Positions 15,355 to 43,671 of a stretch of 64,000 nucleotides of DNA are shown here, one piece after another (position 1 is the first letter of the stretch; the number at the start of each line of letters is the position of its first letter). Source of the stretch: Dactylosporangium sp. AC04546 (GTDB lineage Bacteria > Actinomycetota > Actinomycetes > Mycobacteriales > Micromonosporaceae). The notes beneath the pieces are model-generated. The model was given only the letters and a program-made list of their open reading frames with translations, was not told where the DNA came from and did not search any database. The stretch spans positions 62,001 through 126,000 of the forward strand of contig NZ_JAHYSG010000002.1 of the NCBI RefSeq assembly GCF_022095675.1, in the 5' to 3' direction. Made by a program: the position numbers and the translations under genes.

Positions 15355-15394
15355 GCTGGCGACGACGTTGGCGATCCCCTATCTCGGTGGAGCT

Positions 15395-20138: not shown

Positions 20139-20474
20139 ATGGCTGGACTGGTTGCGGGCCCGGAACAGATGGTGGCACAAGCGCAGCAATGCGATCGGAT
20201 CAGTGAGGAACTCGTCGCGCGCATGACGAGCCTTGTCGGGCAGATCGAGGGCCTCAGCGGCGTCGGCATGGCGGGCCTGGCGGACAAGGCCCTCCAGGGT
20301 TCTTCGCAGCGCCTCCATCAGGGAATGGTGCAGATCACCCAAGCGCTCGGCGAACTCGCCGGCAAGATGCGAAACGCGGCGAACCAGCTCTCGACCGACG
20401 ACAGCGACGTCGCGCGAACGATCGACACGGCCGGCGACCTCGGCGGCACAGTGATCACGTCCCTGCGCGGATAG
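20139..20474 (+). CDS. WXG100-like Esx protein (EsxB position)
   Basis: A 111-residue all-helical protein first in the Esx operon, 43 bases ahead of a classical WXG protein. The central turn is GLSGVGMAGLADKAL, so Trp is missing at the WXG position, as in one partner of many Esx pairs. The C-terminus has no YxxxD/E secretion motif, and the protein contains no tyrosine at all. The ATG is preceded by GGAG with 8 bases spacing; the upstream open frame is not protein-like. It probably forms a heterodimer with the 20518 product and is exported by the EccBCDE channel. Confidence 0.75.
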   Translation: MAGLVAGPEQMVAQAQQCDRISEELVARMTSLVGQIEGLSGVGMAGLADKALQGSSQRLHQGMVQITQALGELAGKMRNAANQLSTDDSDVARTIDTAGDLGGTVITSLRG

Positions 20475-20822: not shown

Positions 20823-21230
20823 ATGGACGACATGCCCGAGCGACCGAACTGGAGTGCGATGAGTGCGCTCGTCGCGGACCTGCGCAACGCCCTGTCCGGC
20901 CTGACCGACGTCCAGCGGCAGATGGTGGAGCTCAGCGGCGAGGCGTGGTCCGACGATCGGTTGATCAGGGTGATGGTCGGCCCCCGCGGCCAGCTCGTGG
21001 AGCTGGACATCGACGCGCGAGTGTTCCGCAATCCCAACGCCAAGGCACTGGCCGCATCGATCATGGGCGCGGCGGAACGGGCGGTCGCCGAGCTCAACGA
21101 GCGGTCGCGCCGGATCGTGGACGACAGCATGCCGGCTGACCTGCGACTGACCCGGATCGGCGGCGACGACCTGGCCGACGTGATGTACCGAAGTGACGCC
21201 GAGCTGCGCACGCAGCCCGGCTCGCGGTGA
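20823..21230 (+). CDS. YbaB/EbfC-like protein (EspL-like)
   Basis: A 135-residue protein with the YbaB/EbfC pattern: an N-terminal helix (ALVADLRNALSGLTDVQRQM), a beta strand RVMVGPRGQLVELDIDARV, then long helices (NAKALAASIMGAAERAVAEL). YbaB proteins bind DNA or act as adaptors; in mycobacterial ESX-1 the EspL protein belongs to this family and stabilises secreted substrates. Here it is third in the Esx operon, so an EspL-like accessory role is likely. Confidence 0.72.
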   Translation: MDDMPERPNWSAMSALVADLRNALSGLTDVQRQMVELSGEAWSDDRLIRVMVGPRGQLVELDIDARVFRNPNAKALAASIMGAAERAVAELNERSRRIVDDSMPADLRLTRIGGDDLADVMYRSDAELRTQPGSR

Positions 21231-21620: not shown

Positions 21621-24600
21621 GTGGATGCCGACGACGTTCTCGCGGAACTGCTGGACTGGTTCGAGTATCTGGGCGACTGGGTTCCAGGCATCGGCACGAA
21701 GGTCTACGAGATCGTCGTCGGTAAGTGGCCGAAGGCGGACCAGTACGCCATCTACGCGTTGGCGGACGAGTGGGGCGACGTCGTGACAATGATGTCCGAC
21801 GCGTCCGCCTCCCTGGCCACCTCCGCCGATCCGATCATCCAGAACTGGCGCAGCTCGGCGGCCATGACGTTCTTCATCGAATGGAACCAGACGGTCGCCG
21901 CCCTCGGTCAGGTCGTCCGCGACATGACGAGGCTGCAGCAAGGCGTGCAGAGCTTCGGCAACAAGATCGAGATGACCAAGTTCACCATCGTCATGAACCT
22001 GTTCATGCTCGCCGTCGCGGTGCTTGCGGCCATCATATCCACGCTGCAGACCGCAGGCCTGTCGTGGACGGGCGTGGGCGCCGCGTTGGCCCGAGCCTCC
22101 ACGTCGATCCTGCGGCAGCGCACCGGCCTGCTCGCCGCCGCCGCCGGCCTCATCCCCAGGATGGCGCCGGGATTGGCGACCCGGGCAGGGCTGGGGGCCA
22201 CCATCATGGGCGGCACCAACCTGGTCGGTCAGGTCGGCCAGATCGTCATGGGCAACCGGACCGCACTCGACGGCGGCGACGTGTTCCGCAGCGCCGCCAC
22301 CGGCGCCGTCTTCCTGGCGCCGATGGGCGGCGGCTTCCTGGGGCACGTCGTCGGCGGCAGCATCGGCGGCGCGGGGGCCTCGGTCGTCGACAACGGCTAC
22401 CGCTGGCTCACCGACCCGGCCTCCCGCAACACGATCAACTGGCTCGGCGACTTCGGGCGCGGGCTTGTCCACGGCGCCGTGATCGGCGGCGCGTTCGGCG
22501 CCCTCGCCACGGTCAGCCGGCAGCCGCCATCCCGCGACACGATACCGGGCGACCGCTGGCAACGCATCGACCTCGGCGACGGCGGCGGAGCGAAATCGTT
22601 CACCAGACCGCTGACGGAACTGCCCAACGTGCGGGAGGTGAAGACCTCCGACTTCCTCGGTGCGAAACTTCGGGGTGGCGACGGTTTCGAACTGCCCGTC
22701 AAGGACCGCAACTTCGGCTACTGGGAGGGCAACGGCCGGGGAGAGCCGCTGGGCGGCGGCCGTTCTGACACTGGCTCCGGTAGTCCAGCCGGCGGCAGCG
22801 GCCGCGCGGCCGCCGAGTCGGGTCAACCCGGGGCGGCGAAGGTCATCGCCAAACCGGACAGTGCCCAGGCGTCGCAGCCGGGCGGGCAGACCGGGACGGC
22901 CCGGCCAGATCCCGGGTCGCCGCAGGCTCGGGTCGAGCTCGGCGAGGGTCCGCGCCCCGACCGGTCCACATCGGACGGAACAGTGTCCACACTGGATCGG
23001 CCGACGACCAGTGAACCGGTCCGGTTCACGCCGATCGAGGCGGAACGTCCTGGTGCCGGGGCATCCGCAGCCGAGCCGCCCGGTGGTGGCGGTCCGCGGA
23101 CGCATGGCGGTGCTCCCCCGACCACGTTCCCCGGTGAGAACCCCGGGCACCGGCCACCCGGGCCGTCGATGCCGGCCGAACCGACCCTACGGCCCGACCC
23201 GACGACGGGCGACAAGCTGGCCGCGCCGGGACCGTTGAGCGACAACTGGGTCGGGGCACCCATCAACGCGGCCACCACCGACACGTTCAACGCGACGCTC
23301 CTGCCGCCGCTGCCGCCGTTCGTCGCACCACCAGCGCTGCCGATGCAGCCGCTGCCGCCGCACCAGCCGTTGTCACCCACCGAGCCGGCGCCCCTGACGC
23401 TGCCGGACTCGCCGCCGCTGACGCCGACTCCACCGGCACCGTTCGCACCGACCCCTCCCGAGCCGGTGCTGCCCGAGCAGCCGCTGCCCCCCGACAATCC
23501 GATCGCTGCTCCACCGATCCCGCCGCAACCACCGGGGCCGCCCGGGCAGCCGACCCATACGCCGCCCAAGCTCGTCCCGGCCGAGCCCGGCCAGGGCGGC
23601 CCGGGAACCGCCGATCCGCTGCCGGCCGACCTTCCCACGCCGACCCAGCCCGGCGTGCCGTGGCTGCCGGAGGCCGACCGGCCCGTCCCGTTCGAGGTCC
23701 CGCTCCCGACCGGACCACAGACGCCGGGTGGGAATCCCCTTCCCGCCGAGGTGCCCATCCCCGGCGCCGACGTGCCGGCCGAAGTCCGGGTCACCGCCGA
23801 CGACATCCCACTCGAGGTGCTCGACGTCGGACGGCACCGCGAGGAGATGCCGCTGCCCCCGGCGTACGGTCCGCAGGAGTTGCCCCTGCTGCCGGGCGCC
23901 GCGGGAAACCCCGTGCCCGCGCCGCAGTTGCGTCCCGGTCTGATCGCCGCCGGTCCGGTCGGCGGGTCCCCGCGTCCGGTGGGTCCAACGCCCTCGTTGC
24001 CCGCGGTTCGGGGCTCCGGCCGGCCCGGTGCCCCCACCGAGCTCATCGAGGCGTACGAGAAGTACCAGAACATTCTGCGACACAACCGCGCACAGGATCC
24101 GGCCCAGCAGGACGCGGCCGAGATCGCCGCCCTGGACGCCCTGGCCGCCGCCCTGGTCGACCTGATGGACTTCCACCAGGACGCGCGGGACCTCCTGACC
24201 GCTCAGCTCGCGCAGGGGCTGGGCGACCCGCGGCGGTACCGCGACCGCATCGCCGAACATACCGAGATGGTCCAGCTGCTCGAAGCAGTCACCGACGCCA
24301 CGGCAGCCGCTCATCAGCCCCGTCCCGGGGAGACCGGCCACGCCGGTCAGCCCGGTCAGGTCGGCGTCAGCCGGGCCGAGCGCTTGGCCGCGCAACTGCG
24401 CGCCGAAGCCGCCCAACGGCGGGCCGAACGAACCTCCGAACAGCAGCTGCCGGCGAGTCCGAGCAAGAGTGCACGGATGGCGCAGCTCGGGCGGCAGGCG
24501 CATGCGGCGGACCGGGCCGCGAACGACCACCGGCTCGACGCCAATCACCTGTTGCGCCCCATCGTCAACGAGCTCGCGCGAGCCGCCGAGCACTGGACGG

Positions 24601-27600
24601 AGATCGAACGCCGGCGCCAGGCGTGGGCGGCTGACGTGGACAGGCGATTCGGCCGGATGGACCTGGCGGAGTTGACCGGCTTGCTGGGCGACCCCGATCT
24701 GCCCGCGAGTCGGGCCGCCGAGCTTCCCGTGGCCATCGCGGGTTCCATCGTGGACCCCGAGCTGTGGGCACGACCCGGTGCCGCGCCGCAGACCGAGCAG
24801 TGGTTGGTCAACGCCGCGGCGACCGCGATCGCTACGGCACTCGACACCGGCGTCAACGCGGTGCCGCGCAGCCGCGCTGTGATCGCGGCCCTGGTCGGAC
24901 GGGACACGCTGCTGCCGCCGTCGGCTTCCGCGTTGCTCGCGCTCACGGAACTCCGGCAGGCCGAGGGCGGCAGCGCGTCGGATCCTCAGGCGGGATCGCC
25001 CACCGCCGCGGCCGCCGTCGCGGTGGCGGCCGAGATCCTGATCGCCTTCGGATCGGCCAAACGTGCCGCCTCAGGTATTTCGCAGTCCGTGCGCGACCTC
25101 GTCGATGCGGCGTCATCGCTCATCGAGGCGGCTACGCCGGTCGAGGTCGACCCGTACCTGCCGCTGCGACCCGATGCCCACAGCGCCGACCTCCGGCTAC
25201 TGGCGGACATCGCCAACAGCGGCGTCGCCAACACGCCCGAGCTGCTGGCCAGCGCGACGGCCGTGTTGACACGGCTGATGCCCTACCTCGGCGATGCCAA
25301 TGGCGCGCTGACCGAACGGTCGAAGAACCAAACGGCGAAGGCGGCCGAAGCGAGAAAGGAAGCCCGCAAGGCCGGCGCAGCGGCAACAAAGGCGCGCAAA
25401 TCCGGCGACCGGCTCGCCGAGACCAGGGCGGCAGCGCAGGAGCGGACGCAGGCGTACAAACAAGGCGAGATCGCCGGTCGGCACGCGAGTCGCTCGAAGG
25501 CGTATGCGAACGCGGCGACCGCGGCCAGGCAGGCGAGGAGGTCGATCGACGCACTGCTCGACAAGCTGCGTCAGGCCGCTCAGCCGTCCCCGGGCCGGCG
25601 CGCCGTGACGGAGCCGCAGTTGGCGAAGGCCGCGAACACCGTACTCGATCTTTTCACCAAGTACGACGCGGCGGTGCGTGCCCTGCAACCCGACAAGGCC
25701 GTGCTGGCCACGAGCGTGCCGCACCAACGGCTGCCGTGGATCGACGGTCTCACGGAGGCGATCAACGCCCGGCTCCGCGAGGAGTGGGGCATCGATCCCT
25801 GGGACGAGCATCCAGCGCTCGCCACACCGGACAAACTGAACCGGATGCTGCGATCGGAGTGGCGCTGGACGATGGGCGGCGGCGCGATGCTCCAGTTCGG
25901 CGAGGGCAGACAGGCGGTCGAGATCAGGGTGCGCATGCGCCCCGGCGATGCGGTGGAGGTGCCCACGCCGGATCTCAACGCCGGCGAACTCATGGTCGGC
26001 CAGATCCCGTACTTCGCCCACGGCAGCGACATCTGGCAACAAGTGCTGGGTGGCAGCTCGGGCACGTCGCTGACGGTGCCCCCACTCGGACCCATCTCCG
26101 CCCTGCTCGACATGATCAAGGTGGGCGCCAGCGTGACGTCCGGCTGGGGACACTCGTGGTCGCAATCCGTGACGGGCGCGGACTTCGGCATGCCGGGTGG
26201 AGTGCTCGACAACCGCGGTCCGTCGACGCTGTTCGACCTGGCCGGCGAGCTGGATCTGTCGTACCGGACCGCCGGGACCATCAAGAGCAACGGTGGCAAC
26301 GCCGGCGCGTGGCGGCCAGTGTCCTTGGACCCGGCGCAGCGACACGTGCGCACCCCGGTGTGGCTACCAGACCCGCTGACGGACCCACCCGGCAACACGA
26401 TCACCAAGCCGAATACGAGCTTCACGGCGCTGCCCGAACACGCGCTGGTCGGCATGACCGGTCTGATCCAGCTGTACGACAAGATCCTGGATGAGCTCGG
26501 CGACAAGGCAGCCATCGGCAGCACGGCACGCGCACAGCTGGCCACCATCATCTTCGAGGTGTATCCCGCCCGGGTGCGCCAAACGGCGCAACAGCAGGTG
26601 ACCTGGCAGATCAGCAACGACGGCAAGGTGGTCGCCGAGATCACCCTGCACACCACAGTGAAGCCTGCGACGGCGAAGGTGCTGGGCAGCAGGGGCGGCG
26701 AACTCTACCTGGAATGGCTCCGGGTCGGGTTCTCACAGGCGAAGATCAGCCGGTCTCAGGCCTGGCCACGCAAGATAGGGCGAACCGCCAAGGCCTGGGT
26801 GCTGAGCGGTCGATACGAGACCGGCTGGGGTCGCAGCAGCAACATGGGCGCAGGCTCCGAGGCGATCCATCCGGTCGTGCAGCGCTTCGCCGGTGCCAAT
26901 GCCGTGCTCGAGATGGAGGTGAACCACCAGGCCGACGTCTCTCTCGCGAACGGCAAGCGCAAGAATCCGGTGCTAGCGTCGGGGACGGTGCTGGTCGCCG
27001 CGCCGGAGACGTACACCTATGCGGCCGGGCTTCCGGTGTCCGCCGACGCGGTGCGACGGGACGCCAACGGCACGGAGATCCGCGATGCCAGCGGTGAGCT
27101 GGTGCTCGACGGAGACCTGATCCTGGCCGCCCCGCCACACCGGAAGCCGGAGAATCCTCTGTGGCGCCAACGCAGTGGCGCTGACGGCGCCGGTCCGGCG
27201 CTCGTGCAGGATCTCACCGGCATCGAGGGGCCGGACGCTCTCCGGGACCAGGTGATGAGCGCGCTCAAGGCTGCCGGATTCACCCCCGCCGGCAAGCTCA
27301 ACGAGTGGACCGCGGTCCGTCTGGAGACGGGTTACGACCAGTTGTTCCAGGACGGCGCTGACGTCGTCGTGTCAAACCGGAAGGGCGAGACGCGCATCCT
27401 TCGCGTGCACGCGACCCGCGTGAACTCCACCTATCTGGGTTACACGCACAAACAGACGCTCGTCGCTCTCGACATCCACTCAGGCGGCGCGGGGCGTAGT
27501 GCCGGTTCCAAGCTGGCCCGATCGGGTGGCGGCGACCTGTCGCTCAAGTCGGCCAGTCTGATCGACCTCGGCGGCGAAGTCGGCGGCGCCGGTGGCTTCG

Positions 27601-30600
27601 GCGCCGGTGGCGGCTGGTCGCGGGAGGCAACGGCGAACGCCTCCGACTGGGTGAACCGCGCCGTACTGTTCGAAGCCGGTGCCGAGGGTAGCGCCGTCTT
27701 CAAGGACACCTTCGACATCACGGTCTCGATGGACTCCAACGGCACGCCCACCGTGCTCGGCACGAGCAACGGTGCCACCGCGAAGGTCATCCTTCCGGTC
27801 GCGCTCCTGCCGGACGCTCGACCCAGGCAACTGCCCTCCTCGTCAACGACGCAGCCGGCGGGTGTGTCGCCCGCAGACCGCGCACGCGAAGCACTGCACA
27901 AGGCGTCGATCCTGCACCTCGACGGTCGGACACGTGAGATGGCGCTCGCCGGGATCGAGCAGCTCGGTCTCACCGTCGATCCCCACTCGCCCGGCATTCT
28001 CGCGATCTCCGCGGGCCTGAACGTGCGCAGTCTCATAGCGGCGGGTCCTACGCTCTTCACCGGAATCGGGCACCAGGTGAACGGCGTCGCCTTTGATGCC
28101 GACGGGCAGGCCGTGCCCATTACCATCGATATCCAGGGTGTGTTGGGCCCGTCGACTGTCGTCGGCATCGGTCCGATGGTGCACGCCGACATCCTCTTCG
28201 GTATGCATTCGGTGGGAGACTCGGCGAGCAGGGGTTGGTCCGTCTCGGGTACTGGTAACGGCTCCTTCCCGGTCGACGTGCTGCAAGGCTCCGGCACGGC
28301 GGCACACGGCCGGGATGCGTCGCGGAGCTCGACGCAGATCGTCGGCGACGAGGGACTGATCCTGGACCTGGGGCAGCAGGTGTTCCGCACTGCCCGAGTC
28401 ACCTTCAACGTCACCGTGACGGCCCGGCCGATCCCGCAGAAGACGTCGACAACGGCCTCGAAGTCGGTCAGCAGCCACAATCACCTCCTGCTCTACTCTG
28501 CGCCCGAGCGGGAGGAGCTCAACAAGTACGTATCCGGCAGCGTGAGCATGCCGTTGGATCTCGTCGTCGACGCCGTCGCACGGTACGCCGGCGGCGAGCT
28601 TCCCCTTGATCGGCTGCCGGCTGTCCGGCTCATCCAGAAGCTGGCCGGCGACGTTGCGGCGCTGCCCGGGAATCCGGGTTTCGTCCCCACCATCGACCGT
28701 CTGGCGCCCGGGCTGCCCCGCCTGCTCGCCCGCAAGCTGCGCCAGGAGTTCGCCGATCAGCAGGCGATCAGCGCCGCGCCCAGGAACGCCACCCCCGTCG
28801 ATCTGCTCGGCACACTGACGTCGCTGGATCGGGGCGGTCAGCTCCCACCGATGGCACGGCAGGGCAAACCACCCGCCCACCTTGAGCACGGCGTGGGACA
28901 GAGCCGCATCTACGACGTCGATCTGCGCAACGCGGCCGGGGACCAGGTGGCAGACGTCTTCCACGAGGTGACGGCCCTGGTCGAGCAGGTCGCACCCGGC
29001 GCGATCGACCGCACGCCAGGCCTGTGGCGCGTCCTGTACAACCGGTTCGCCTACGGTCGCTGGCTCAACGGGCTCGAAGACGGCATGGGCAGCAACGTGT
29101 GGCGGACCGTCATCGAGATCGTGCCGAAAAGCGGCAACGGGCGCGAAGAGATCGCCGTCGAGATGAGCGCGGTGAGCCTCGAGGACGGTGAGATTCTCGG
29201 CATCGACGACAAGATCGCGCTGATCCACCAGAACTATCATTATGAACAGTCCAACCACGGTGGATCGCGAAACAGCTCCCGATCCGGAGAGGTCTCCGTG
29301 GGCGCGCCCTGGCCTGTCTCGTTCAAGTATGCGGAGGGCTGGACCAGGAAGACCTCCAGTTCGGCATCGCACAACGCACAGTTGACCCGGTTGTTCCAGG
29401 GCGCGAGCTTCACGCCGTTTGCGCGGGTGCAGCGACCGATCACCCTCACCCTGACGGCCAGCAGACACTCCGCGCCGTTGCCCGGTGTCGACAGGGTGAT
29501 GCGAGGGGCGATCAACCTGATCCCCGGTCGGAATGCTCCGCACAGTCAGTCCGCCACGCTGACCGGCACGGTGCTCCAACTGGTTCCCGAAGACGAGATC
29601 GAATGGGCGGGTGGTACGCCCCACAATTCGGCGCAGCCCGCCGTAGCCGATCCGACGTCCGTCTCGCTGCCGCACTCCCTTGATGTCGAGACGGTCGTCG
29701 TCGGCCCGGTCGCCGCCGAGATCGTGAGCCGACTGGGCCGGCGCGACCTGATGGGCGGGCGTGCCCACGAGGTGGCGGAGATCGTCTACTCGGCGCTGCG
29801 CCCCTCCTCCTACCGTGTCCAGCTGTCCCGGATGAGCACCTCCACCGGGCACAGGATCGCCGAGCTGCCGGTTCCCGGCCGACCGAAGAAGTCGGTCGAC
29901 GTCATCGTCCGCGCCCGGATCTCCGAACTCGTCATCATCACCGAACGCGGCAACGTGCGGATCGGCGATATCGACCGGATCGAGCACATCGCCGAGTACT
30001 CCCACAGCAGCGGGACGGCGAAGGCAGACAGTGTGACGGTCGGCGCGCTCGGCGGGGAACTCGCTCGGCGCGGCGAGCGCATGTACGCGGTGACGCACAC
30101 GGAGAAGATCGGCGGCCGGGACGAGACGACCGTTCTCTACGTCACCGAAGGGGCACTGATCGCCGTTCGGGTCGATCATGACGTGACGTTCGAGGTCCAC
30201 AAGGACGGCCGTCGCGACGGCACGCCACTCAGGACGGTCGTCCTCCCGGGAGCCGGCAGCGGCCGTGCGAACATCACCGTGGCCAAGGCACATCTGAGCG
30301 GGATGGGCAGGCAACCGTCGACCGGCGCGTGGGAGGCGCTGCTCGCCGATGTCGGGCAACCCCTCTCCCCCGGCGCGGTCGGCCCTGACACGCCTCGGGC
30401 GCTTCGCCGACTTTTGCGGCGCTTGGCGGGCAGCAACGCCCCGCCGTTGACCCTCGAACAACTGGCCCGCGCGGCCCTGGGCCCGGGCGGCACCATCCCG
30501 GGCGCGGTCAGCGCCTCGCCCCGGGTCTTTAACGTCGAACCCGTGGTTGACGCCGCGCCGGCGCCGCTGAACCCGCTGGATCTCGGCGCCGTGGTGGCCC

Positions 30601-31655
30601 GCGAGACGGGGGCGCTCGTCGTCTTCGACGTGCGCTTCGCCGATGGCGAGGTGCGGCGGTACTTCGCCATGCCCAACGGTCGCGTCCATGCCGACGGCGA
30701 CGCCTTCGGCACGCCCTCGCGGCCGATCAACGCGCTGCACACCCCGTTCGGCATCAACCGCGCCGACTGGGCCGCGCCCGGTGCGAACAACGCCGACGCG
30801 ATCGAGGAGCTGGCCCGCGCGTTCCTTCCCGACGTCGCGGAACAGGTGTTTGTCACGCCGCCGGTGGTGAGTCCCGTCGTCGGGCAGCCGGAGGGCGTGT
30901 TCGACGTCGACGGTGACGGCGTGTCGCTGCGGCTGCGTGTCGGCGCCGGCGAGTTCACGACCATCGGCGACGGCTCGGCCGCGCCGGCACCGGCCCAGTC
31001 CGTCCGTGTGGCGGGCGGAACGCGACCGGAATGGCAGGTCCAGATCAACGCGGGGATCAAGCCGTCCCTGGTGGCGCGGAACCTCGGTCACGAGCTACGG
31101 GAAATCGTGCTCCGCGAGCGCGGGTCGGCGCCGGAGGCCGCACACCAGGGAGGTGTCTCGGCGGAGTTCGAGATCACGGCGCTGGAGCTCAGCCGACCGG
31201 TGGCCGAGCAGTCCGGCGCCAGCGTCGGGCGCTGGATGGAGTCGCTGTTCGAGCTGGTCTCGCTCGACCGTGCGGCGGGTGACACGGTGGCGCGGGCCAG
31301 TCACCGGCAGGACATACTCGATCAGGTCAGCCATCCGCCGGCCGTCCAGCGTGCCTTCGATCTGCTCGACGAGGTCGATGCGGCGGGCTGGGCGCCTTGG
31401 CAGCTCGCCGCGGCGGCCCGCGCGCAGAGCGGATACACCGAACTCAGCGCCACGGGACACGACGCCCTGGCGCCCGTGCTCGCCGCGCGTCAACAGGCGC
31501 TCGACACCGTGCTGGCCAGCCTTTCACTCACGCCGCACGAGGCGCAGGCGGCCCGTGACGAGGTGCACTGGACACCGCAGCATCCGTCCGGCGGCACCGA
31601 TGGCTCCGCCGGCCTCGACGGCACCGGCATCATTTCAACGTACGGAGAGCGATGA
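21621..31655 (+). CDS. Giant WXG-like, proline-rich type VII protein (3344 aa)
   Basis: This gene fills 10 kb. Residues 1-115 resemble the helical head of CpnT-like and PPE-like substrates (AIYALADEWGD with a YxxxD motif; NWRSSAAMTFF in the WXG position). A hydrophobic helix at about 120-147 and Gly-rich hydrophobic segments to 300 follow. Residues 375-805 are Pro-rich. Residues 805-1380 are helical, with an Ala/Lys coiled coil (KAAEARKEARKAGAAATKAR). Residues 1380-2910 are beta-rich with recurring GW(G/S/T)-Ser-rich motifs near 1507, 1734, 1997, 2204 and 2572. The C-terminus (2970-3344) is a separate domain with GHELREIV at 3156. No known toxin domain is recognised. The GTG start follows ATGGAG. 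The stop overlaps the next gene (ATGA). Role as secreted effector or surface fibre is inferred. Confidence 0.8.
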   Translation: MDADDVLAELLDWFEYLGDWVPGIGTKVYEIVVGKWPKADQYAIYALADEWGDVVTMMSDASASLATSADPIIQNWRSSAAMTFFIEWNQTVAALGQVVRDMTRLQQGVQSFGNKIEMTKFTIVMNLFMLAVAVLAAIISTLQTAGLSWTGVGAALARASTSILRQRTGLLAAAAGLIPRMAPGLATRAGLGATIMGGTNLVGQVGQIVMGNRTALDGGDVFRSAATGAVFLAPMGGGFLGHVVGGSIGGAGASVVDNGYRWLTDPASRNTINWLGDFGRGLVHGAVIGGAFGALATVSRQPPSRDTIPGDRWQRIDLGDGGGAKSFTRPLTELPNVREVKTSDFLGAKLRGGDGFELPVKDRNFGYWEGNGRGEPLGGGRSDTGSGSPAGGSGRAAAESGQPGAAKVIAKPDSAQASQPGGQTGTARPDPGSPQARVELGEGPRPDRSTSDGTVSTLDRPTTSEPVRFTPIEAERPGAGASAAEPPGGGGPRTHGGAPPTTFPGENPGHRPPGPSMPAEPTLRPDPTTGDKLAAPGPLSDNWVGAPINAATTDTFNATLLPPLPPFVAPPALPMQPLPPHQPLSPTEPAPLTLPDSPPLTPTPPAPFAPTPPEPVLPEQPLPPDNPIAAPPIPPQPPGPPGQPTHTPPKLVPAEPGQGGPGTADPLPADLPTPTQPGVPWLPEADRPVPFEVPLPTGPQTPGGNPLPAEVPIPGADVPAEVRVTADDIPLEVLDVGRHREEMPLPPAYGPQELPLLPGAAGNPVPAPQLRPGLIAAGPVGGSPRPVGPTPSLPAVRGSGRPGAPTELIEAYEKYQNILRHNRAQDPAQQDAAEIAALDALAAALVDLMDFHQDARDLLTAQLAQGLGDPRRYRDRIAEHTEMVQLLEAVTDATAAAHQPRPGETGHAGQPGQVGVSRAERLAAQLRAEAAQRRAERTSEQQLPASPSKSARMAQLGRQAHAADRAANDHRLDANHLLRPIVNELARAAEHWTEIERRRQAWAADVDRRFGRMDLAELTGLLGDPDLPASRAAELPVAIAGSIVDPELWARPGAAPQTEQWLVNAAATAIATALDTGVNAVPRSRAVIAALVGRDTLLPPSASALLALTELRQAEGGSASDPQAGSPTAAAAVAVAAEILIAFGSAKRAASGISQSVRDLVDAASSLIEAATPVEVDPYLPLRPDAHSADLRLLADIANSGVANTPELLASATAVLTRLMPYLGDANGALTERSKNQTAKAAEARKEARKAGAAATKARKSGDRLAETRAAAQERTQAYKQGEIAGRHASRSKAYANAATAARQARRSIDALLDKLRQAAQPSPGRRAVTEPQLAKAANTVLDLFTKYDAAVRALQPDKAVLATSVPHQRLPWIDGLTEAINARLREEWGIDPWDEHPALATPDKLNRMLRSEWRWTMGGGAMLQFGEGRQAVEIRVRMRPGDAVEVPTPDLNAGELMVGQIPYFAHGSDIWQQVLGGSSGTSLTVPPLGPISALLDMIKVGASVTSGWGHSWSQSVTGADFGMPGGVLDNRGPSTLFDLAGELDLSYRTAGTIKSNGGNAGAWRPVSLDPAQRHVRTPVWLPDPLTDPPGNTITKPNTSFTALPEHALVGMTGLIQLYDKILDELGDKAAIGSTARAQLATIIFEVYPARVRQTAQQQVTWQISNDGKVVAEITLHTTVKPATAKVLGSRGGELYLEWLRVGFSQAKISRSQAWPRKIGRTAKAWVLSGRYETGWGRSSNMGAGSEAIHPVVQRFAGANAVLEMEVNHQADVSLANGKRKNPVLASGTVLVAAPETYTYAAGLPVSADAVRRDANGTEIRDASGELVLDGDLILAAPPHRKPENPLWRQRSGADGAGPALVQDLTGIEGPDALRDQVMSALKAAGFTPAGKLNEWTAVRLETGYDQLFQDGADVVVSNRKGETRILRVHATRVNSTYLGYTHKQTLVALDIHSGGAGRSAGSKLARSGGGDLSLKSASLIDLGGEVGGAGGFGAGGGWSREATANASDWVNRAVLFEAGAEGSAVFKDTFDITVSMDSNGTPTVLGTSNGATAKVILPVALLPDARPRQLPSSSTTQPAGVSPADRAREALHKASILHLDGRTREMALAGIEQLGLTVDPHSPGILAISAGLNVRSLIAAGPTLFTGIGHQVNGVAFDADGQAVPITIDIQGVLGPSTVVGIGPMVHADILFGMHSVGDSASRGWSVSGTGNGSFPVDVLQGSGTAAHGRDASRSSTQIVGDEGLILDLGQQVFRTARVTFNVTVTARPIPQKTSTTASKSVSSHNHLLLYSAPEREELNKYVSGSVSMPLDLVVDAVARYAGGELPLDRLPAVRLIQKLAGDVAALPGNPGFVPTIDRLAPGLPRLLARKLRQEFADQQAISAAPRNATPVDLLGTLTSLDRGGQLPPMARQGKPPAHLEHGVGQSRIYDVDLRNAAGDQVADVFHEVTALVEQVAPGAIDRTPGLWRVLYNRFAYGRWLNGLEDGMGSNVWRTVIEIVPKSGNGREEIAVEMSAVSLEDGEILGIDDKIALIHQNYHYEQSNHGGSRNSSRSGEVSVGAPWPVSFKYAEGWTRKTSSSASHNAQLTRLFQGASFTPFARVQRPITLTLTASRHSAPLPGVDRVMRGAINLIPGRNAPHSQSATLTGTVLQLVPEDEIEWAGGTPHNSAQPAVADPTSVSLPHSLDVETVVVGPVAAEIVSRLGRRDLMGGRAHEVAEIVYSALRPSSYRVQLSRMSTSTGHRIAELPVPGRPKKSVDVIVRARISELVIITERGNVRIGDIDRIEHIAEYSHSSGTAKADSVTVGALGGELARRGERMYAVTHTEKIGGRDETTVLYVTEGALIAVRVDHDVTFEVHKDGRRDGTPLRTVVLPGAGSGRANITVAKAHLSGMGRQPSTGAWEALLADVGQPLSPGAVGPDTPRALRRLLRRLAGSNAPPLTLEQLARAALGPGGTIPGAVSASPRVFNVEPVVDAAPAPLNPLDLGAVVARETGALVVFDVRFADGEVRRYFAMPNGRVHADGDAFGTPSRPINALHTPFGINRADWAAPGANNADAIEELARAFLPDVAEQVFVTPPVVSPVVGQPEGVFDVDGDGVSLRLRVGAGEFTTIGDGSAAPAPAQSVRVAGGTRPEWQVQINAGIKPSLVARNLGHELREIVLRERGSAPEAAHQGGVSAEFEITALELSRPVAEQSGASVGRWMESLFELVSLDRAAGDTVARASHRQDILDQVSHPPAVQRAFDLLDEVDAAGWAPWQLAAAARAQSGYTELSATGHDALAPVLAARQQALDTVLASLSLTPHEAQAARDEVHWTPQHPSGGTDGSAGLDGTGIISTYGER

Positions 31656-32218
31656 GAATGCTCCAGGCGAGGTCGCCAGAGGAGTGCCAGCTCTACATGG
31701 CGCTGCACCCGTGTGCGTGCGGCGAAAGCACGTTCGCCTGGTCGAGGCACTACACGGTGCCAGAACCCGGCCGGCCGGACGAGCGCGGAGCGTCCGTCTA
31801 CGAGGGCGACTGCCCGGGTTGCCGGCGGAGTCGGCGCTTCCGGTTCCTCATCCCACTGGCACCCGCGCCATCGCCCGCGTTCGGTGGCGCCGAGCCCTCC
31901 CGCATCATCGACCCCGCCCAGTTCCTGGACCACTACCGGGCCACGGTGGCCACCGTGGTGCCGGATCCGGCCCGGGTGCCGGCGCACCTGCTGCCGCGAC
32001 AGTACGCGCTGCTGCGGACCGGACTGGCCGCGTTGGAAGAGGTGCTCAAGTTCGTTCCACCCGGGGCCACGGTCGTGCCGGCGGGATCCTTCACCTCTGC
32101 GGCCGGGGCGGCCAGCTACGCCCGTGACCCCGGTCAGTTCCGCCGGGAACGGCTGATCGCGCTCCTCGAACTGCACCAGGTCACGGTCGCCGCCTACGCG
32201 CGGGCGCTGACGCGGTGA
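31652..32218 (+). CDS. Zinc-ribbon-like protein coupled to the giant gene
   Basis: A 188-residue protein I do not recognise by name. The N-terminal third has two Cys pairs, HPCACGESTFAW and CPGCRRSRR, spaced about 38 residues apart, the geometry of a zinc ribbon. The rest is helical (RQYALLRTGLAALEEVLKFV) with no membrane or signal segment, so it should be cytoplasmic. Its ATG overlaps the stop of the giant gene by 4 bases, so translation is coupled and amounts are probably matched. A chaperone, escort or immunity partner for the giant protein is the most economical guess. Confidence 0.65.
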   Translation: MRMLQARSPEECQLYMALHPCACGESTFAWSRHYTVPEPGRPDERGASVYEGDCPGCRRSRRFRFLIPLAPAPSPAFGGAEPSRIIDPAQFLDHYRATVATVVPDPARVPAHLLPRQYALLRTGLAALEEVLKFVPPGATVVPAGSFTSAAGAASYARDPGQFRRERLIALLELHQVTVAAYARALTR

Positions 32219-32245: not shown

Positions 32246-33094
32246 GTGACCGGTGAGCTCGGTGTGGCCGCCTGGCAGCCCGCCAACGAGACCGAACAGG
32301 CCATGGCCGCGGCGCTCGACGCCGACGACCGCCGCGGGTACTTTCGGCTGCTCGCCGGGGCCGACCTCTATCTGCCCGGCTACGCCGAGTCCGACCCGGG
32401 CCCTACGGAACTGCTCACCGCCGACTTCCTCGGCGAGACATACCTGCTCGCCTTCACCTCGGCCGAGGCGCTGACGGCACGGCTCGGCGAGTTGGCCAAC
32501 GCCTACCGCGTGGTCACCTACGAGCAGTTGCGTGCGCAGTGGCCGCAGTGGCGCCTCGCCGTCAACCCTGACCTCCCGCTGGCCGTCTACACCTCGCCCG
32601 ACGCGGTCGCGGCGGCCGCCGGCGGAGCGCTCGCGGTGGCACGCGAGTCCGAACTCCTCAGCGCGCCGCACAGCCTTGGTGTGGTCGCGCACAACGCGGT
32701 CGAAGAGGTCCTTGCCGCCGCGGTCGCGTCGGGCGACCCCGAGGCCTACCTGCGAGCGCTGCTGGCCGCGGAGGTGACGGTGCCCACCCGGCGCGATCTC
32801 ACCGCACCGGGCGCGGCCCACCTCGTCAGTACGGAACTCTTTCCCTGGCTTCCTGGTGGCACGGCGCAAGCACCATCGATCAGCGTGTTCACCTCACCGG
32901 CCAGGTTCACGCAGGCGCTGCCGGCGGCGCCGTCGGTGACGGTCGCGTTCGTCCTCGTCGCGGCGACCTGGCCGGAGGGCTACACCCTCGTGGCCAACCC
33001 CGGCACGGCGCTGCAGCTGACCCTGCCCGCGGCACGGCTACGCCAACTCGTGCCGACAGACGCGGACCAGCCATCGGCAGCTGGTGAACAGTGA
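32246..33094 (+). CDS. SseB-family protein with two SseB-like domains
   Basis: A 282-residue cytoplasmic protein with two copies of an SseB-type domain. Copy 1 includes DRRGYFRLLAGADLYLPG, TYLLAFTSAEALTARLG and WRLAVNPDLPLAVY. Copy 2 includes AYLRALLAAEVTVPT, SISVFTSPARFTQALP and GYTLVANPGTALQL. SseB-like domains occur in actinobacterial type VII loci and may act as chaperones or scaffolds, though their biochemistry is poorly known. The GTG start follows GGAG at 6 bases. The stop overlaps the mycosin start by 4 bases (GTGA). Confidence 0.75.
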   Translation: MTGELGVAAWQPANETEQAMAAALDADDRRGYFRLLAGADLYLPGYAESDPGPTELLTADFLGETYLLAFTSAEALTARLGELANAYRVVTYEQLRAQWPQWRLAVNPDLPLAVYTSPDAVAAAAGGALAVARESELLSAPHSLGVVAHNAVEEVLAAAVASGDPEAYLRALLAAEVTVPTRRDLTAPGAAHLVSTELFPWLPGGTAQAPSISVFTSPARFTQALPAAPSVTVAFVLVAATWPEGYTLVANPGTALQLTLPAARLRQLVPTDADQPSAAGEQ

Positions 33095-34395
33095 GAACCC
33101 GACGTGGCCTGGCCACCCTGTTGCTGGCCAGCGGTCTGATCGCGATGATCGGTGCGCTGTCGACCGCTCGTCCGTCCGCCGCGGGACCGCTCGTCGCGGC
33201 GCCCGCAAACTGCGCCGCCGCGGGCCAGGAGTATGCCCCGATACCTTGGGCGACGAGCCTGCTCGCTCCGGCACGGGTGTGGCCGTTCGCCCGCGGCAAC
33301 GGGATCCGCGTCGCCGTGCTCGACTCCGGCGTGGATGCCTCGCACCCGCTGCTGACGGGCCGGGTCGCCGCCGGCTACGACGCGGTGACCGAGAAGGGGC
33401 GAGCCGACTCCGACTGTACCGGGTCCGGAACGCGAGTCGCGGGAGTGATCGTGGCCCAGCCGTCACCGGCGCGAGGCTTCAGCGGGCTCGCACCGGCCGC
33501 GACGATCCTGCCGGTGCGGATCCTGCCCGACAACGGGTACTCCGACCCGGACCAGGCGGACCCGGTGGTACTGGCCCGCGCCATCACCTGGGCGACCGCG
33601 CAGTCCGCCCAGGTGATCTGTGTGCCCGTGCCGACCTATGTCGACAGTCCCGAGCTGCGGGCGGCGGTCACCGCGGCGGTCGGGCGTGGGATCGTCGTGG
33701 TCGCCGCGGTCGGGAACCTGGGCGGCACCAGTTCAGCGAATCCCACCCCCTATCCGGCCGCGTACCCGGGTGTGCTCGGTGTCGGTGCGGTTGACGCGAA
33801 CGCCGGGCGCTGGGCCAGCTCGCAGCACGGCGAGTACGTCGATCTGGTGGCGCCGGGCGATGACATCGTCTCGACCCAGCGCTCGGGCGGCCTGGCCGGG
33901 ACCGACGGCACGGGCGTGGCGGCGGGCCTCGTGGCGGGCACGGTCGCACTGGTGCGCGAAGCGCATCCGGGTCTGGGTCCGGACGCCGTCGCGGCTCGGC
34001 TGTTCGCCACGGCGACGCCGGCCGGGGACCGGGCCCCGAGTCACGACTACGGCGCGGGCATCGTCAACCCCTACAACGCCGTCACCGACCGGCTGCCCAC
34101 GCCGGCGGCATCAGCCGGCCTCCCGATGTTCACGCCGCCCGAGTCTGACGTGGACCTGGTCGGCCCGGAGCGTCGACGGCGCGCGACGGTGCTGACCGCC
34201 GGGCTCATGCTCGTGGCGGCGGCGATCTGGATCGGGCGAACGGCGGTGATCAGGGGTTCGCGCCGGCGTTGGCGCTCAGCACTCGCCGAGCCACCGCCGC
34301 AACCGGCCGAGCCGGCGGCACCGGGTCCGCCGGTGCCGCTCTTCGAGGAGGAGGAGCCACTCGGCGCGACCCCTGCCCGACGCGCCACTCGCTGA
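33091..34395 (+). CDS. mycP: Mycosin (MycP-type subtilase), catalytically degenerate
   Basis: A 434-residue subtilase-like membrane protein with the mycosin layout: Sec signal (residues 1-31), S8 fold, and a C-terminal membrane anchor (ATVLTAGLMLVAAAIWIG) with cytoplasmic Pro-rich tail. The catalytic Asp is present (VAVLDSGVD, D78) and the oxyanion Asn is present (AVGNLG, N209). The His motif DxxGHGTxVAG reads DCTGSGTRVAG, Ser at 112. The Ser motif GTSxAAPxVAG reads GTGVAAGLVAG, Gly at 275. Both changes are plain in the DNA (tcc, ggc), so hydrolysis should be impossible. Mycosins also stabilise the ESX membrane complex independently of proteolysis, the role I infer here. Its gene overlaps SseB and shares the operon with the giant protein. 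Confidence 0.85.
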   Translation: MRTRRGLATLLLASGLIAMIGALSTARPSAAGPLVAAPANCAAAGQEYAPIPWATSLLAPARVWPFARGNGIRVAVLDSGVDASHPLLTGRVAAGYDAVTEKGRADSDCTGSGTRVAGVIVAQPSPARGFSGLAPAATILPVRILPDNGYSDPDQADPVVLARAITWATAQSAQVICVPVPTYVDSPELRAAVTAAVGRGIVVVAAVGNLGGTSSANPTPYPAAYPGVLGVGAVDANAGRWASSQHGEYVDLVAPGDDIVSTQRSGGLAGTDGTGVAAGLVAGTVALVREAHPGLGPDAVAARLFATATPAGDRAPSHDYGAGIVNPYNAVTDRLPTPAASAGLPMFTPPESDVDLVGPERRRRATVLTAGLMLVAAAIWIGRTAVIRGSRRRWRSALAEPPPQPAEPAAPGPPVPLFEEEEPLGATPARRATR

Positions 34396-34432: not shown

Positions 34433-35827
34433 TCAGCCGACGACCGGCAGGAGGGCCTGGGCGGGGTCGAGCGTCGGTCCGGTCGGCAGGCGTTGCGCCA
34501 GGGCGACCGGCACGTCGACCGCACGCGCCGCGCTGTACCCCAGAAATCCCAGCACCTCGCCGGACGGCACCGGATAGCGGACACCCAGATCGGTCACGAT
34601 CGAGTAGGTGCCGACCTCAGCGTCCGGCGAGGGCAGCACGCGGATGACAGCGACCGCACCGGCCGGGACAGCGACCCGGTCGGCCAGGCTCGCCCCGGTT
34701 CCGGAGCGTCCGGCGGTAGGAATGCCGGCGTTGAGTGCGGCGTGCGCGCCGCCGAGACGCACCACCGGCTCGGCGCGGGCGTTCACGGTGCTGGCACAGA
34801 CCAGACCATCAGGCTCCGGCTCGACCAACACCGGTGTCCGCTGCGGCGGTGCCGTCACACCTTCGGCGGTAGGCAGGGCGGAACTTCGCGGCGCGGCGGA
34901 CGCGATCGCGACGGTGATCTCGATCGGTCGGACCGCTGCCTGGGCGGCCAGCAGCGCTTGCTGCAGGCTGGTCAGTGGCGCCAGGCCGTCGTCGAAGACG
35001 AGGTAGTACTGCGGTCCGGCGGCGGTGGGTGCGGCGAGCAGGTCGCCGATGCGACGGTCGGGCACGGCGCTGGCGAGCTCACCGCGCCTGAGCACGACGA
35101 TCGGGCCGATGTCGGCGCCGACCGGCAGCGCGTTGAGCCAGGCCGTCCCTACCGGAACCGACCTGGCCGTCGCGCCGAACAGCGCCGGCACCACCGCCTC
35201 GGCCAGGGCGTACCGGTGGCCGCGCCACACCAGAAAGCGCTGGCCGGCTACGGCGTCACGCGCCAGGACCGCGTGCTCGGCATCCACCGTCGTGCCACCG
35301 GTGGGCTCGTGGCCGACGACGAGGCTGGTCACGGTGGTCGCAGCGCCGGAGGCGCTGACCGCCTCGGCGGTGCACATCGACCACGGCAGCCCGACCGCGC
35401 TCGCGGCCGGCGGCAGCGAGTTCGGCGCGCCCGGGATGCCGACCGTGACCGCGCGGGGCACGCCCGCAAGCGCGGAGTGCGACACCCGGAACACCGGCGC
35501 GCCCGGGCGTCCGGACAGCAGCAGCGCGGATGCGTAGTTCAGCGTGGGGTGCAGCCGGCCGGCCACATAGACGAAGCTCGCGCCGGTTTCCTTCTCGATC
35601 ACCACCGCGCCGTCGGCCCGCCAGCCGTTGCCGCCCACCTTCGTGATCAGGCCGTACACGCCATAGGCGGCACCCACGACGATCGCGACCATCAGCCCCG
35701 CGAACACGGCCCCGACGCCACGCCGCAGCGGCGACTGCGCGGGATCGGTCTCGCGCATGACGAACGCGGAGATGACCCGCTGCACCAGAAACTGGTAGGC
35801 GTGCAGCTGATCCTTGCGTGATGCCAT
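34433..35827 (-). CDS. eccB: Type VII secretion protein EccB
   Basis: A 464-residue EccB. The signature N-terminus MASRKDQLHAYQFLVQRVIS is followed by one membrane segment (residues about 42-62, FAGLMVAIVVGAAYGVYGLI) and a large extracytoplasmic region with repeats, ending VALAQRLPTGPTLDPAQALL. EccB is part of the inner-membrane EccBCDE complex, with its periplasm-like domain forming the outer lobe. The start lies 6 bases after the eccD stop, so eccD-eccB form an operon. It runs convergent to mycP. Confidence 0.95.
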   Translation of the reverse strand: MASRKDQLHAYQFLVQRVISAFVMRETDPAQSPLRRGVGAVFAGLMVAIVVGAAYGVYGLITKVGGNGWRADGAVVIEKETGASFVYVAGRLHPTLNYASALLLSGRPGAPVFRVSHSALAGVPRAVTVGIPGAPNSLPPAASAVGLPWSMCTAEAVSASGAATTVTSLVVGHEPTGGTTVDAEHAVLARDAVAGQRFLVWRGHRYALAEAVVPALFGATARSVPVGTAWLNALPVGADIGPIVVLRRGELASAVPDRRIGDLLAAPTAAGPQYYLVFDDGLAPLTSLQQALLAAQAAVRPIEITVAIASAAPRSSALPTAEGVTAPPQRTPVLVEPEPDGLVCASTVNARAEPVVRLGGAHAALNAGIPTAGRSGTGASLADRVAVPAGAVAVIRVLPSPDAEVGTYSIVTDLGVRYPVPSGEVLGFLGYSAARAVDVPVALAQRLPTGPTLDPAQALLPVVG

Positions 35828-41428: not shown

Positions 41429-42574
41429 TCACGCGTAGTTGGTGGTCCGGGCGCCGCAGCGGTCGACCCGCTGTTCGGACTGGTCACCGCTGCACACCCG
41501 GTACGCGACCGTGGTACCGCTGGCCAGGTTCAGGTCTTTCCAGTTGCAGGTGCCGGCGCCGCCGCTCGCCCACATCCAGACATCCGCCCCGCCCGCGACG
41601 GAATACTGAACCAGCGCGGCCAGACCGTCGGCCTTGTTGTCGCACACCTCGAGCGTGTCGCTCGACTTGTCGAACTCCGCCCAGGCCTCGCAGTTGGACG
41701 TCACGCACATGCGGGTGGGACCGGACGCCGGTGTTGTCGCGATCTTCGTTGTCGTCGTCACCTTTGTGGACGGCTGGGGCAGGGGTGGCGGCGCCGTGGT
41801 CGGCGGTTTGGGCGTCGGCGTGGGCACGGAGGTCGGCGTGGGCGAAGGCGCGAGGGTCGGATCGCCCGCCCGCGCCAGGGACTCCTCGGTGGGCAGCTCG
41901 GGCGCCGCCACGGTCGGCGTCGGCTCATCCTCGCCGATACCGAACGAGGGATACAGCAGTCCACCGACCACCACAACCATGATTCCGGCGATGGCGGCGA
42001 GCACCAGTGGGCGGCGGCCGCGCCCGTGCGGCGGCGGTGCGGGCTGCTCGGGCGGCGCCGGGTCCGCGTTCTCGGGCGGACCCTCTGCGGCAAACTGCGG
42101 TGCGGCATCATCGGGCGCCGGAGACAACGCAACGCGTGGTTCGGGTCGCCACCGTGCCACGCCGGGCCGGTGCCGCCCAGCCGGCACGTTGTCGGGAGGA
42201 AAGGCCTCGCTCGTCAGGTCCTCGTTGCGCGTTCGGGACGCGGCGACGAGCAAGGCGAGTGCCTCGGGTGAGCCGCGGTGCCAGCCGATCCGCAGGCGTT
42301 GCGGCGCTCGCCCCGGCCGGCCAGTGCCGCCGGGAGGACCATCCGGTTGACCCGCCGGGACCGCCACCGAGGATGGCGGCGGAGCCGGCGCGGCGAGCGG
42401 CGTGGCCAGCGACTGCGCCGTGGCAGCCGCTGCGGCCTCACCTCGCCCGACCGCATCGGCTCCTCCTCGTGCGGCACTGGCCGACTGCTCAACGGCGGCC
42501 CCCGGCTCGGTCACGTCGCCCAGCCGAGGCGTGGCTGCCCCGCGGCGTGGTCGTGCTGCGGTCGGCTCAGTCAC
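41429..42574 (-). CDS. Single-pass membrane protein with Cys-containing ectodomain
   Basis: A 381-residue protein of no named family. Residues 1-185 are a cytoplasmic, Ala/Pro-rich disordered region with a short ordered island (LRIGWHRGSPEALALLVAAS). One membrane segment follows at about 187-208 (LVLAAIAGIMVVVVGGLLY), then a Thr/Pro linker. The C-terminal ectodomain of about 95 residues has Cys pairs and the motif VWMWASGGAGTC. That last pattern resembles the secreted protein at 44005 (EWLWNGGGAGT). The gene overlaps the eccE stop by 4 bases, so it belongs to the secretion operon; a surface-facing accessory of the channel is inferred. Confidence 0.7.
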   Translation of the reverse strand: MTEPTAARPRRGAATPRLGDVTEPGAAVEQSASAARGGADAVGRGEAAAAATAQSLATPLAAPAPPPSSVAVPAGQPDGPPGGTGRPGRAPQRLRIGWHRGSPEALALLVAASRTRNEDLTSEAFPPDNVPAGRHRPGVARWRPEPRVALSPAPDDAAPQFAAEGPPENADPAPPEQPAPPPHGRGRRPLVLAAIAGIMVVVVGGLLYPSFGIGEDEPTPTVAAPELPTEESLARAGDPTLAPSPTPTSVPTPTPKPPTTAPPPLPQPSTKVTTTTKIATTPASGPTRMCVTSNCEAWAEFDKSSDTLEVCDNKADGLAALVQYSVAGGADVWMWASGGAGTCNWKDLNLASGTTVAYRVCSGDQSEQRVDRCGARTTNYA

Positions 42575-43671
42575 CGCGGGCCTCCCCCGGTCGGTGCGGA
42601 CGCGTAGGCGCCTGCGGCCTGCTCACCGTCCAACTGGAACAGTGTGGCCTGGAAGTGCTGGACACTCAGGCCGAGGTTGTCGCAGATCCGGTCGAGGTCG
42701 CGGGGTCGTGCGCCCACGCGCGCCAGGCACCGGACATTCGCGCCGTCGCCGTCCGGCACGACCACGATGCTGACGCTGGTGAGGACCGCCTCCACGGAGC
42801 CGAACGTGGCCAGCAGCTCGCCCGCATCCGCGATCCGTGGCCAACCACTGACCCAGAAGGCACGGTGCGCCACGTCGCCGGTGTACCAGGATTGCCACTC
42901 CTCGTACGGACCGGATTGTGGTGCTTGCCCGGCATCGTGCACGCGGTCGAGCGCGCACGATCTGACCATGGCGTCGAGCAACCCGGTCCGGTCGAGCGGC
43001 GCTGCGGAGAACCCGTCCCGGTGGAGCGTCCGGACGAGGCGCCGAACCAGCACCACCACTGCGGCTGGCACGCTGTCGAGCTCCTCCGCGCCGGCCTCGG
43101 CGAGGCTCTGCGCGTCCAACCGTACGGCCACCCAGATCGCGGCACGCTCGCCGTGTTCGTAGTGCGTGACGACCTGGAGCGCCGTGCCGGGAGAGTCGGT
43201 GCCCGCCAGCGCACGAACCAGCACCTCACACGGGACGCCGTGCTGGTCAGGCTGGGGCGCCACCTCGGCCACCGCAAACCAGCCGGCACCGTCGGCGGCA
43301 ACGCCGACCCCTGACCCGTCCGCGATCGTCACCTCGTCGACCCGCAACCCCTCAGCGAGCGAACCCAGTGTGCTGAGCCTCCAGTCCTCGGCCGGCCCGT
43401 GGCCAGGCCGCACTTTGCGTCGCCGCCGGTACTGCCGTTTGACGATGGCCCATTCCAGCCTCGTCCGGCCGCGTTGACGCCCCCACCGCAGTGTCAACGC
43501 GGCCGCGACGGTGACCCCGAACGCCGATGCGGTGAAGCCGAGGTTCACGACGACCAGAAGGACGACGACGACCAACTCCACGAGCAACAGTTGGACGACA
43601 TCCAGCGGGCCCAGCCCGCCGCGGACAGGTCGAAGGTCTTCGGCCTGGGTGGCACGGGCTGTCACCGCCAC
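42571..43671 (-). CDS. eccE: Type VII secretion protein EccE
   Basis: A 366-residue EccE. Two N-terminal membrane segments (VVQLLLVELVVVVLLVVVNL and FTASAFGVTVAAALTL) are followed by a basic linker and a cytoplasmic domain ending LSVQHFQATLFQLDGEQ, as in the family. EccE sits at the periphery of the EccBCDE complex. The GTG start follows GGAGG by 4 bases. The downstream ATGA overlap couples it to the membrane protein at 41429. Confidence 0.85.
   Translation of the reverse strand: MAVTARATQAEDLRPVRGGLGPLDVVQLLLVELVVVVLLVVVNLGFTASAFGVTVAAALTLRWGRQRGRTRLEWAIVKRQYRRRRKVRPGHGPAEDWRLSTLGSLAEGLRVDEVTIADGSGVGVAADGAGWFAVAEVAPQPDQHGVPCEVLVRALAGTDSPGTALQVVTHYEHGERAAIWVAVRLDAQSLAEAGAEELDSVPAAVVVLVRRLVRTLHRDGFSAAPLDRTGLLDAMVRSCALDRVHDAGQAPQSGPYEEWQSWYTGDVAHRAFWVSGWPRIADAGELLATFGSVEAVLTSVSIVVVPDGDGANVRCLARVGARPRDLDRICDNLGLSVQHFQATLFQLDGEQAAGAYASAPTGGGPR

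What the first reader, a model, noticed from the sequence alone, without database searches (positions are those of the whole stretch)
33091..34395. Type VII locus with a catalytically dead mycosin
The subtilase triad is broken at two of three positions: the His motif reads DCTGSGTRVAG (Ser112) and the Ser motif reads GTGVAAGLVAG (Gly275), while Asp78, Asn209, signal peptide and membrane anchor remain. Established work shows mycosins have a structural role in stabilising the ESX membrane complex separate from proteolysis. This locus may have retained only that role. It is the only mycosin in the window and is encoded with the giant protein rather than with eccB/eccD.
Basis: partly seen in the sequence, partly recalled or inferred. 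Interest (0 to 1): 0.78.

Follow-up and report, generated by a model that had tools for sequence, protein, structure and literature searches.

The report
Protease-dead mycosin in an ESX locus
A bacterial secretion machine carries a protease-shaped cap protein whose cutting site is gone, and a large family of relatives shares the loss, which suggests that the protein is kept as a structural part and not as a protease.

Summary
The gene at 33091-34395 (+) encodes a mycosin-type subtilase with Asp78 and Asn209 kept, catalytic His replaced by Ser112 and catalytic Ser by Gly275. It is neither a sequencing error nor a one-off: two close relatives have the same residues, and 106 of the 119 other listed homologs lack a working Asp/His/Ser triad. 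The window gene falls in one large dead clade; the EccCs of its loci form one clade too (20 of 20 rows dead), mostly Micromonosporaceae. In 20 named dead loci it is the only mycosin found; 17 show EccB-EccD-EccC beside it. A second dead lineage (mostly His to Arg, Ser to Ala) serves another EccB-EccD-EccC locus of the same genome. Fold-wide conservation in the dead clade matches that of active mycosins, but catalytic and substrate-strand columns are lost; dN/dS is below 0.5. The genome also holds 8 intact mycosins; 18 of 18 relatives' genomes checked hold one. Best reading: a structural pseudoprotease that braces the ESX membrane complex, as engineered inactive MycP1/MycP5 do. The giant-protein link is weak. 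No experiment has been done.

The parts
33091..34395 (+). mycosin-type subtilase without His and Ser of the triad (D78, S112, N209, G275), N-terminal hydrophobic (signal-like) helix, C-terminal helix 359-394 (membrane anchor by sequence)
33424..33426 (+). codon TCC, Ser112 at the catalytic His position
   Evidence: alignment; shared by P0003 and P0004
33913..33915 (+). codon GGC, Gly275 at the catalytic Ser position
   Evidence: alignment; shared by P0003 and P0004
32246..33094 (+). SseB-domain protein, 4-base overlap with the mycosin start
   Evidence: Pfam PF07179 8e-14
31652..32218 (+). 188 aa protein, no Pfam family, homologs at sister loci
21621..31655 (+). giant 3344 aa protein with N-terminal WXG100-like domain, probable T7SS substrate (inferred)
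   Evidence: Pfam PF25547 2.6e-14
34433..35827 (-). EccB, GIPGAP motif kept
   Evidence: TIGR03919 283 bits
35834..37270 (-). EccD
   Evidence: TIGR03920 178 bits
37436..41395 (+). EccC, three ATPase domains, Walker A motifs present
   Evidence: TIGR03924 942 bits, TIGR03925 878 bits; sequence
42571..43671 (-). EccE
   Evidence: Pfam PF11203 3.9e-14
41429..42574 (-). proline-rich protein with a hydrophobic segment, between EccC and EccE
   Evidence: no Pfam hit; translation
17068..18909 (-). 613 aa protein, Pro-rich tail, possible ESX substrate (PPE/EspB-like look, from recall, not shown)
   Evidence: only a weak WXG100_2 match, E 0.11; homologs beside sister mycosins
15368..17071 (+). right-handed beta-helix fused to an AAA+ ATPase (EccA/CbbX-like, label recalled)
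   Evidence: Pfam PF13229, PF00004, PF17866

Best explanation
The protein is a pseudoprotease mycosin. It is exported, anchored by one C-terminal helix, keeps the mycosin fold and N-terminal extension, and acts as the outer-face structural cap of its own ESX complex, bracing the EccB assembly as MycP5 does, without cutting any substrate. This ESX subtype gave up substrate processing early in its history and kept only the bracing role. Shown here: residues, predicted fold, linkage, clade-wide loss, selection. Inferred: absence of activity, export and anchoring, assembly into the complex, function of the system.
Against: No activity, binding or secretion data. The tryptophans of the MycP5-EccB5 interface are not seen at the aligned EccB positions in the loci read, active or dead, so the same contact cannot be claimed. 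Intact mycosins elsewhere in the genome could act in trans. dN/dS is higher than in 9 intact pairs (0.11-0.26), so constraint is somewhat weaker. Inactive MycP1 raised ESX-1 secretion in the cited work, so catalysis is not without effect there. Some new conserved residues (Asp209 in 87% of the weighted dead rows) hint at a changed pocket function.
Confidence: 0.72

Rival explanations
1. Mixed assembly: the dead mycosin braces the complex while an intact paralog from elsewhere in the genome supplies cutting in trans, joining the cap or acting after secretion.
For: 13 mycosin-type genes in the genome, 8 intact; 18 of 18 genomes with a dead locus hold an intact one; several intact mycosins stand without Ecc genes in the stretch read, e.g. 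L107, L167, L170, L172.
Against: The dead gene is the only mycosin ORF found in 20 of 20 named dead loci; the substrate strand (177, 179) is also eroded, which fits no need for cutting at this place.
Confidence: 0.13
2. Re-used pocket: the former active site now binds a substrate segment or partner without cutting, as a gate or chaperone of secretion.
For: Asp at the oxyanion position in 87% of the weighted dead rows, and further columns conserved in dead rows but not in intact ones: G45, L77, G103, A105, G211, Q263, G279.
Against: The catalytic positions themselves vary (T, S, L, Q, A and others at His; mostly G or A at Ser), and the window protein lacks Asp209.
Confidence: 0.1
3. Relic: the gene is a decaying remnant in a dying locus.
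For: Higher dN/dS than intact mycosins; in two of 8 pairs about twice that of EccB.
Against: dN/dS below 0.5 in all 8 pairs and within the range of EccB or near it in most; open frame, conserved fold, EccB/C/D/E all present; loss shared across genera.
Confidence: 0.03
4. Hidden catalysis: other residues replace the missing His and Ser.
For: None found.
Against: No column has a conserved His in the 125 dead rows (best 63%, position 85); the only Ser conserved in 85% or more (244) is equally conserved in intact mycosins.
Confidence: 0.02

Closest known systems
Mycosins MycP1/MycP3/MycP5 of mycobacterial ESX systems
   Same: Subtilase fold, N-terminal extension, C-terminal membrane helix (predicted), ESX linkage; two cysteines (41, 109) invariant in 41 dead relatives, disulfide in MycP from recall
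   Different: The mycobacterial ones are described as proteases with all features for activity; this one lacks His and Ser, and most clade members lack the oxyanion Asn too
Engineered inactive MycP1 S354A and MycP5 S461A (van Winden 2016, PMC5082899, passages)
   Same: No catalytic Ser; secretion kept
   Different: Laboratory mutants; here the state is natural and shared by a clade; MycP1 S354A secreted more than wild type
Pseudokinase YukC/EssB of the Bacillota T7SSb (PMC9600267, search listing with start of abstract)
   Same: A secretion-complex part named in the title as a pseudoenzyme
   Different: Kinase-like, unrelated protein, other phylum
CspC-type pseudoproteases (NCBIfam NF040808, weak hit)
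   Same: Subtilase relative named as non-triad
   Different: Germinant receptor by the model's name; hit 27.9 bits against a cut-off of 675

Membership tests
Mycosin family (TIGR03921, MycP) | Subtilase domain with mycosin profile score | tested here: inconclusive
   268.9 bits, cut-off 278.75; intact paralogs of the same genome also fall below it, e.g. 274.6 and 267.2
Mycosin family (TIGR03921, MycP) | Asp-His-Ser catalytic triad | tested here: not met
   D78, S112, G275; so it is not filed as a mycosin protease but as a non-catalytic relative
Mycosin family (TIGR03921, MycP) | MycP fold with N-terminal extension along the protease domain | tested here: met
Mycosin family (TIGR03921, MycP) | Signal peptide and single C-terminal membrane helix | tested here: inconclusive
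   Predicted helices 5-22 and 359-394; no dedicated signal or topology program was run
Mycosin family (TIGR03921, MycP) | Encoded with ESX core genes | tested here: met
   EccB, EccD, EccC, EccE beside it
Mycosin family (TIGR03921, MycP) | Needed for ESX complex stability | not testable with these tools
   needs deletion and complex purification
Active S8 peptidase | Triad and oxyanion Asn | tested here: not met
   His and Ser absent; Asp78 and Asn209 kept
T7SSa / ESX system | EccB, EccC, EccD core with FtsK-type ATPase | tested here: met

The most novel reading that the evidence does not exclude
Actinobacterial ESX systems have dropped proteolysis at least twice, giving stable, ancient protease-free ESX subtypes in which the mycosin is a pure structural or gating cap whose former active site has been re-used, so that large or sensitive substrates pass uncut.
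Probability: 0.25. Interest if true: 0.8.

Novelty: new variant of a known kind. Interest (0 to 1): 0.62.

Why it matters
Why ESX systems need a mycosin but not its protease activity has been argued from laboratory mutants in mycobacteria. A natural clade in which catalysis is gone while the fold is as conserved as in active relatives gives evolutionary support for a separate structural role, and offers soil actinobacteria as hosts in which that role can be studied in a complex whose own mycosin cannot cut.

Tried and rejected
Sequencing error: rejected, relatives share both residues. Only-mycosin-in-genome: rejected. Replacement His or Ser: none conserved. Giant protein as obligate partner: not supported, homologs at 2 of 20 dead loci (L037, L055) and 1 of 60 intact loci (L039, Kribbella; L050 gave only E=0.008); flanks of at most 10 kb cut many loci, so absence is weak. 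Interface tryptophans as a discriminator: absent in active and dead loci alike, no information. The layout as a mark of dead systems: rejected, loci with intact mycosins have it too (L203, L207, L208, L209; L026, L030 and others). Oxyanion Asn as part of the 'dead' call: dropped, because it shifted between alignments; 33 of the rows compared among 343 changed in a recorded position, in the Ser position only own-genome L013. still used the older label (anything other than DHNS). Single origin of all dead rows: the AU test is borderline (p 0.0503, lnL difference 37.6), so two origins are likely, not proven; in the same careful tree the window lineage needs 2 changes and is one clade in 26% of bootstrap trees, while the quick tree of the same rows shows it as one side (SH-aLRT 82).

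Rows dropped before counts: L075_2471 and L054_7171 (82 ORFs to 80), P0154 and P0194 (119 to 117). In one search also P0110 and P0111, the own-genome dead rows, and four own-genome intact rows (L004, L006, L008, L010) that are far from the rest; leaving these out lowers the entropy of the intact set. In one search labels for the added loci were set by hand; L179 was labelled dead from a gapped row, and it and the contig C76 EccC lie outside the clade of 20. Trees are quick LG+G4 trees without bootstrap.

Literature: no paper on natural inactive mycosins was seen in searches. These cover open-licence PMC papers only, and of the broad searches I saw only the listed part (30 of 65, 15 of 71, 12 of 182, 20 of 342, 12 of 20). 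This does not show that none exists.

Full report
Observation. Asp78 (VLDSGVD) and Asn209 (AVGN) are present; the His motif is DCTGSGT and the Ser motif GTGVAAG. The HMMER alignment to subtilisin Carlsberg puts S112 and G275 on the catalytic His and Ser. Two relatives (P0003, named Dactylosporangium sp. NPDC050688, 86% identical; P0004, 83-85%) share both residues, so an error in the sequence is very unlikely.

Surroundings. The locus holds EccB, EccD, EccC, EccE, a giant 3344 aa protein with a WXG100-like N-terminus, a 188 aa protein and an SseB-domain protein. The giant gene, the 188 aa gene, the SseB gene and the mycosin run in one direction; the first two overlap by 4 bases, as do the last two. 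EccB is convergent, its end 37 bp from the end of the mycosin. EccC has Walker A motifs in all three ATPase domains (sequence). The machine therefore looks complete.

Same genome. The genome (13.0 Mb, 348 contigs, listed contamination 11.5%; the other six genomes of the genus are given 4-10%) has 13 mycosin-type matches of 190 bits or more. Eight have the triad; L007 (the window gene), L009, L011 and L012 lack it, and L013 is unclear because its Ser motif aligns differently. Seven EccC genes pass the family cut-off: four lie by intact mycosins (contigs C7, C12, C22, C32), one is the window, one (C76) lies by L012, another dead mycosin, and one (C111) has no mycosin in the 15 kb read.

How widespread. 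The protein search matched 820 proteins and listed 120, the first being the window protein itself. Of the 120, 107 lack Asp, His or Ser: His lost in 104, Ser in 106, Asp in 41 (106 of 119 without the window protein). In 80 named loci from one genome scan, which kept the best 80 of 542 relatives (82 ORFs, two dropped), 20 are dead and 60 intact. The 20 come from Actinoplanes (9), Micromonospora (5), Actinocatenispora (2), Phytohabitans, Rugosimonospora, a Micromonosporaceae MAG and Amycolatopsis marina. In each, one mycosin ORF was found in the stretch held; 17 of 20 have EccB, EccD and EccC in the window layout, L037 has EccC in another layout, L023 has EccB and EccD before its contig ends, and L056 is cut just after the mycosin. 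Eighteen of these 20 genomes were searched: the best mycosin of each is intact, 18 of 18. In a sample of 200 genomes of the family, a strict search with an intact relative (P0036, E up to 1e-90) found a match in 15; of the 13 stretches then read, 5 have an intact triad, 6 a dead one and 2 are gapped, so the lineage is patchy.

Descent. With the triad columns masked, 115 dead rows including the window protein form one group (SH-aLRT 97; 192 rows; quick tree). The EccC proteins of the same loci, which are independent data, give the same answer: 20 of 20 EccCs beside such mycosins group together (SH-aLRT 99; 65 rows, two more dead-labelled rows lie elsewhere). The loss is thus a property of an ESX subtype. 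Its nearest intact mycosins (P0024, P0036, P0046 and others) branch beside it; in the wide tree they fall among early dead branches, so the order of losses there is open. One of them, P0036 (named Longispora fulva), sits in a stretch without EccB, EccC or EccD in the 20 kb read (L197).

Second lineage. A search with the dead mycosin of contig C76 matched 177 proteins and listed 120, 119 of them new; of 117 compared (two dropped), 93 are dead, 74 of them or nearly so with Arg at the His position, 57 with Asp-Arg-x-Ala. Its ten representatives are one clade (100/100) in the careful tree of 61 rows, apart from the window clade with intact lineages between. An AU test that forces both together gives p 0.0503 and a log-likelihood 37.6 lower, so separate origin is likely and not proven. 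The wide tree needs at least 11 changes of state, 6 forced by well-supported branches (162 rows, quick tree). The C76 locus has EccB, EccD and EccC (no EccE was recognised), and so has a DRPA relative in Phytohabitans flavus (L176, EccC in two frames).

How it most likely works. In M. marinum, inactive MycP1 and MycP5 still support secretion (inactive MycP1 even raises it), and mycosins stabilise the membrane complex (PMC5082899, passages). In the ESX-5 structure a MycP5 trimer caps the EccB5 chamber and complexes without it are loose (PMC8131196, passages and section 7). The window protein keeps what that role needs in fold and anchoring and lacks what cutting needs. I therefore take it as a structural cap. 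The exact contact cannot be copied from ESX-5, because the tryptophans described there are not found at the aligned positions of the EccB sequences read here, with active or dead mycosins.

Limits. All is sequence and prediction. Whether intact paralogs cut in trans, and whether the former pocket has a new use (Asp209 in 87% of the weighted dead rows, though Asn in the window protein), is open. Literature was searched only in open-licence PMC papers.

Noticed in passing
15368-17071 (+): Right-handed beta-helix domain fused to an AAA+ ATPase with lid domain (CbbX/EccA-like, label recalled), in the ESX neighbourhood; related frames occur at dead loci L021, L023, L074 and L090 and at intact L080, matched there through the opposite-strand reading.
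   Followed up: partly
17068-18909 (-) and 18912-20342 (-): Two adjacent proteins without a significant Pfam match that look like a paired ESX substrate set; homologs lie beside dead mycosins in Actinoplanes loci L061, L074, L076, L082.
   Followed up: partly
20823-21230 (+): YbaB/EbfC-family small protein (36 bits) upstream of the giant gene.
   Followed up: no
L102 (own genome, contig C7): Three intact mycosins around one EccB/EccC/EccD/EccE locus.
   Followed up: no
L163 11869-13104 (-), own genome contig C76: Second EccB-EccD-EccC locus with a dead mycosin (Asp-Arg-Asp-Ala), member of another large dead clade.
   Followed up: yes
L197 (Longispora fulva-type locus): Intact close relative of the dead clade with no EccB, EccC or EccD recognised in the 20 kb read, near an AAA+ and an SseB match.
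   Followed up: no
P0200, P0201, P0205, P0206, P0207, P0210, P0216: Seven mycosin-like proteins, all named Kitasatospora, in which the catalytic Asp is Gly while His and Ser stay: possibly a further loss.
   Followed up: no
L114 (same genus, G004): Another dead mycosin, Asp-His-Ser-Gly at the four positions, in a sister genome; in the wide tree it is near own-genome L009.
   Followed up: no
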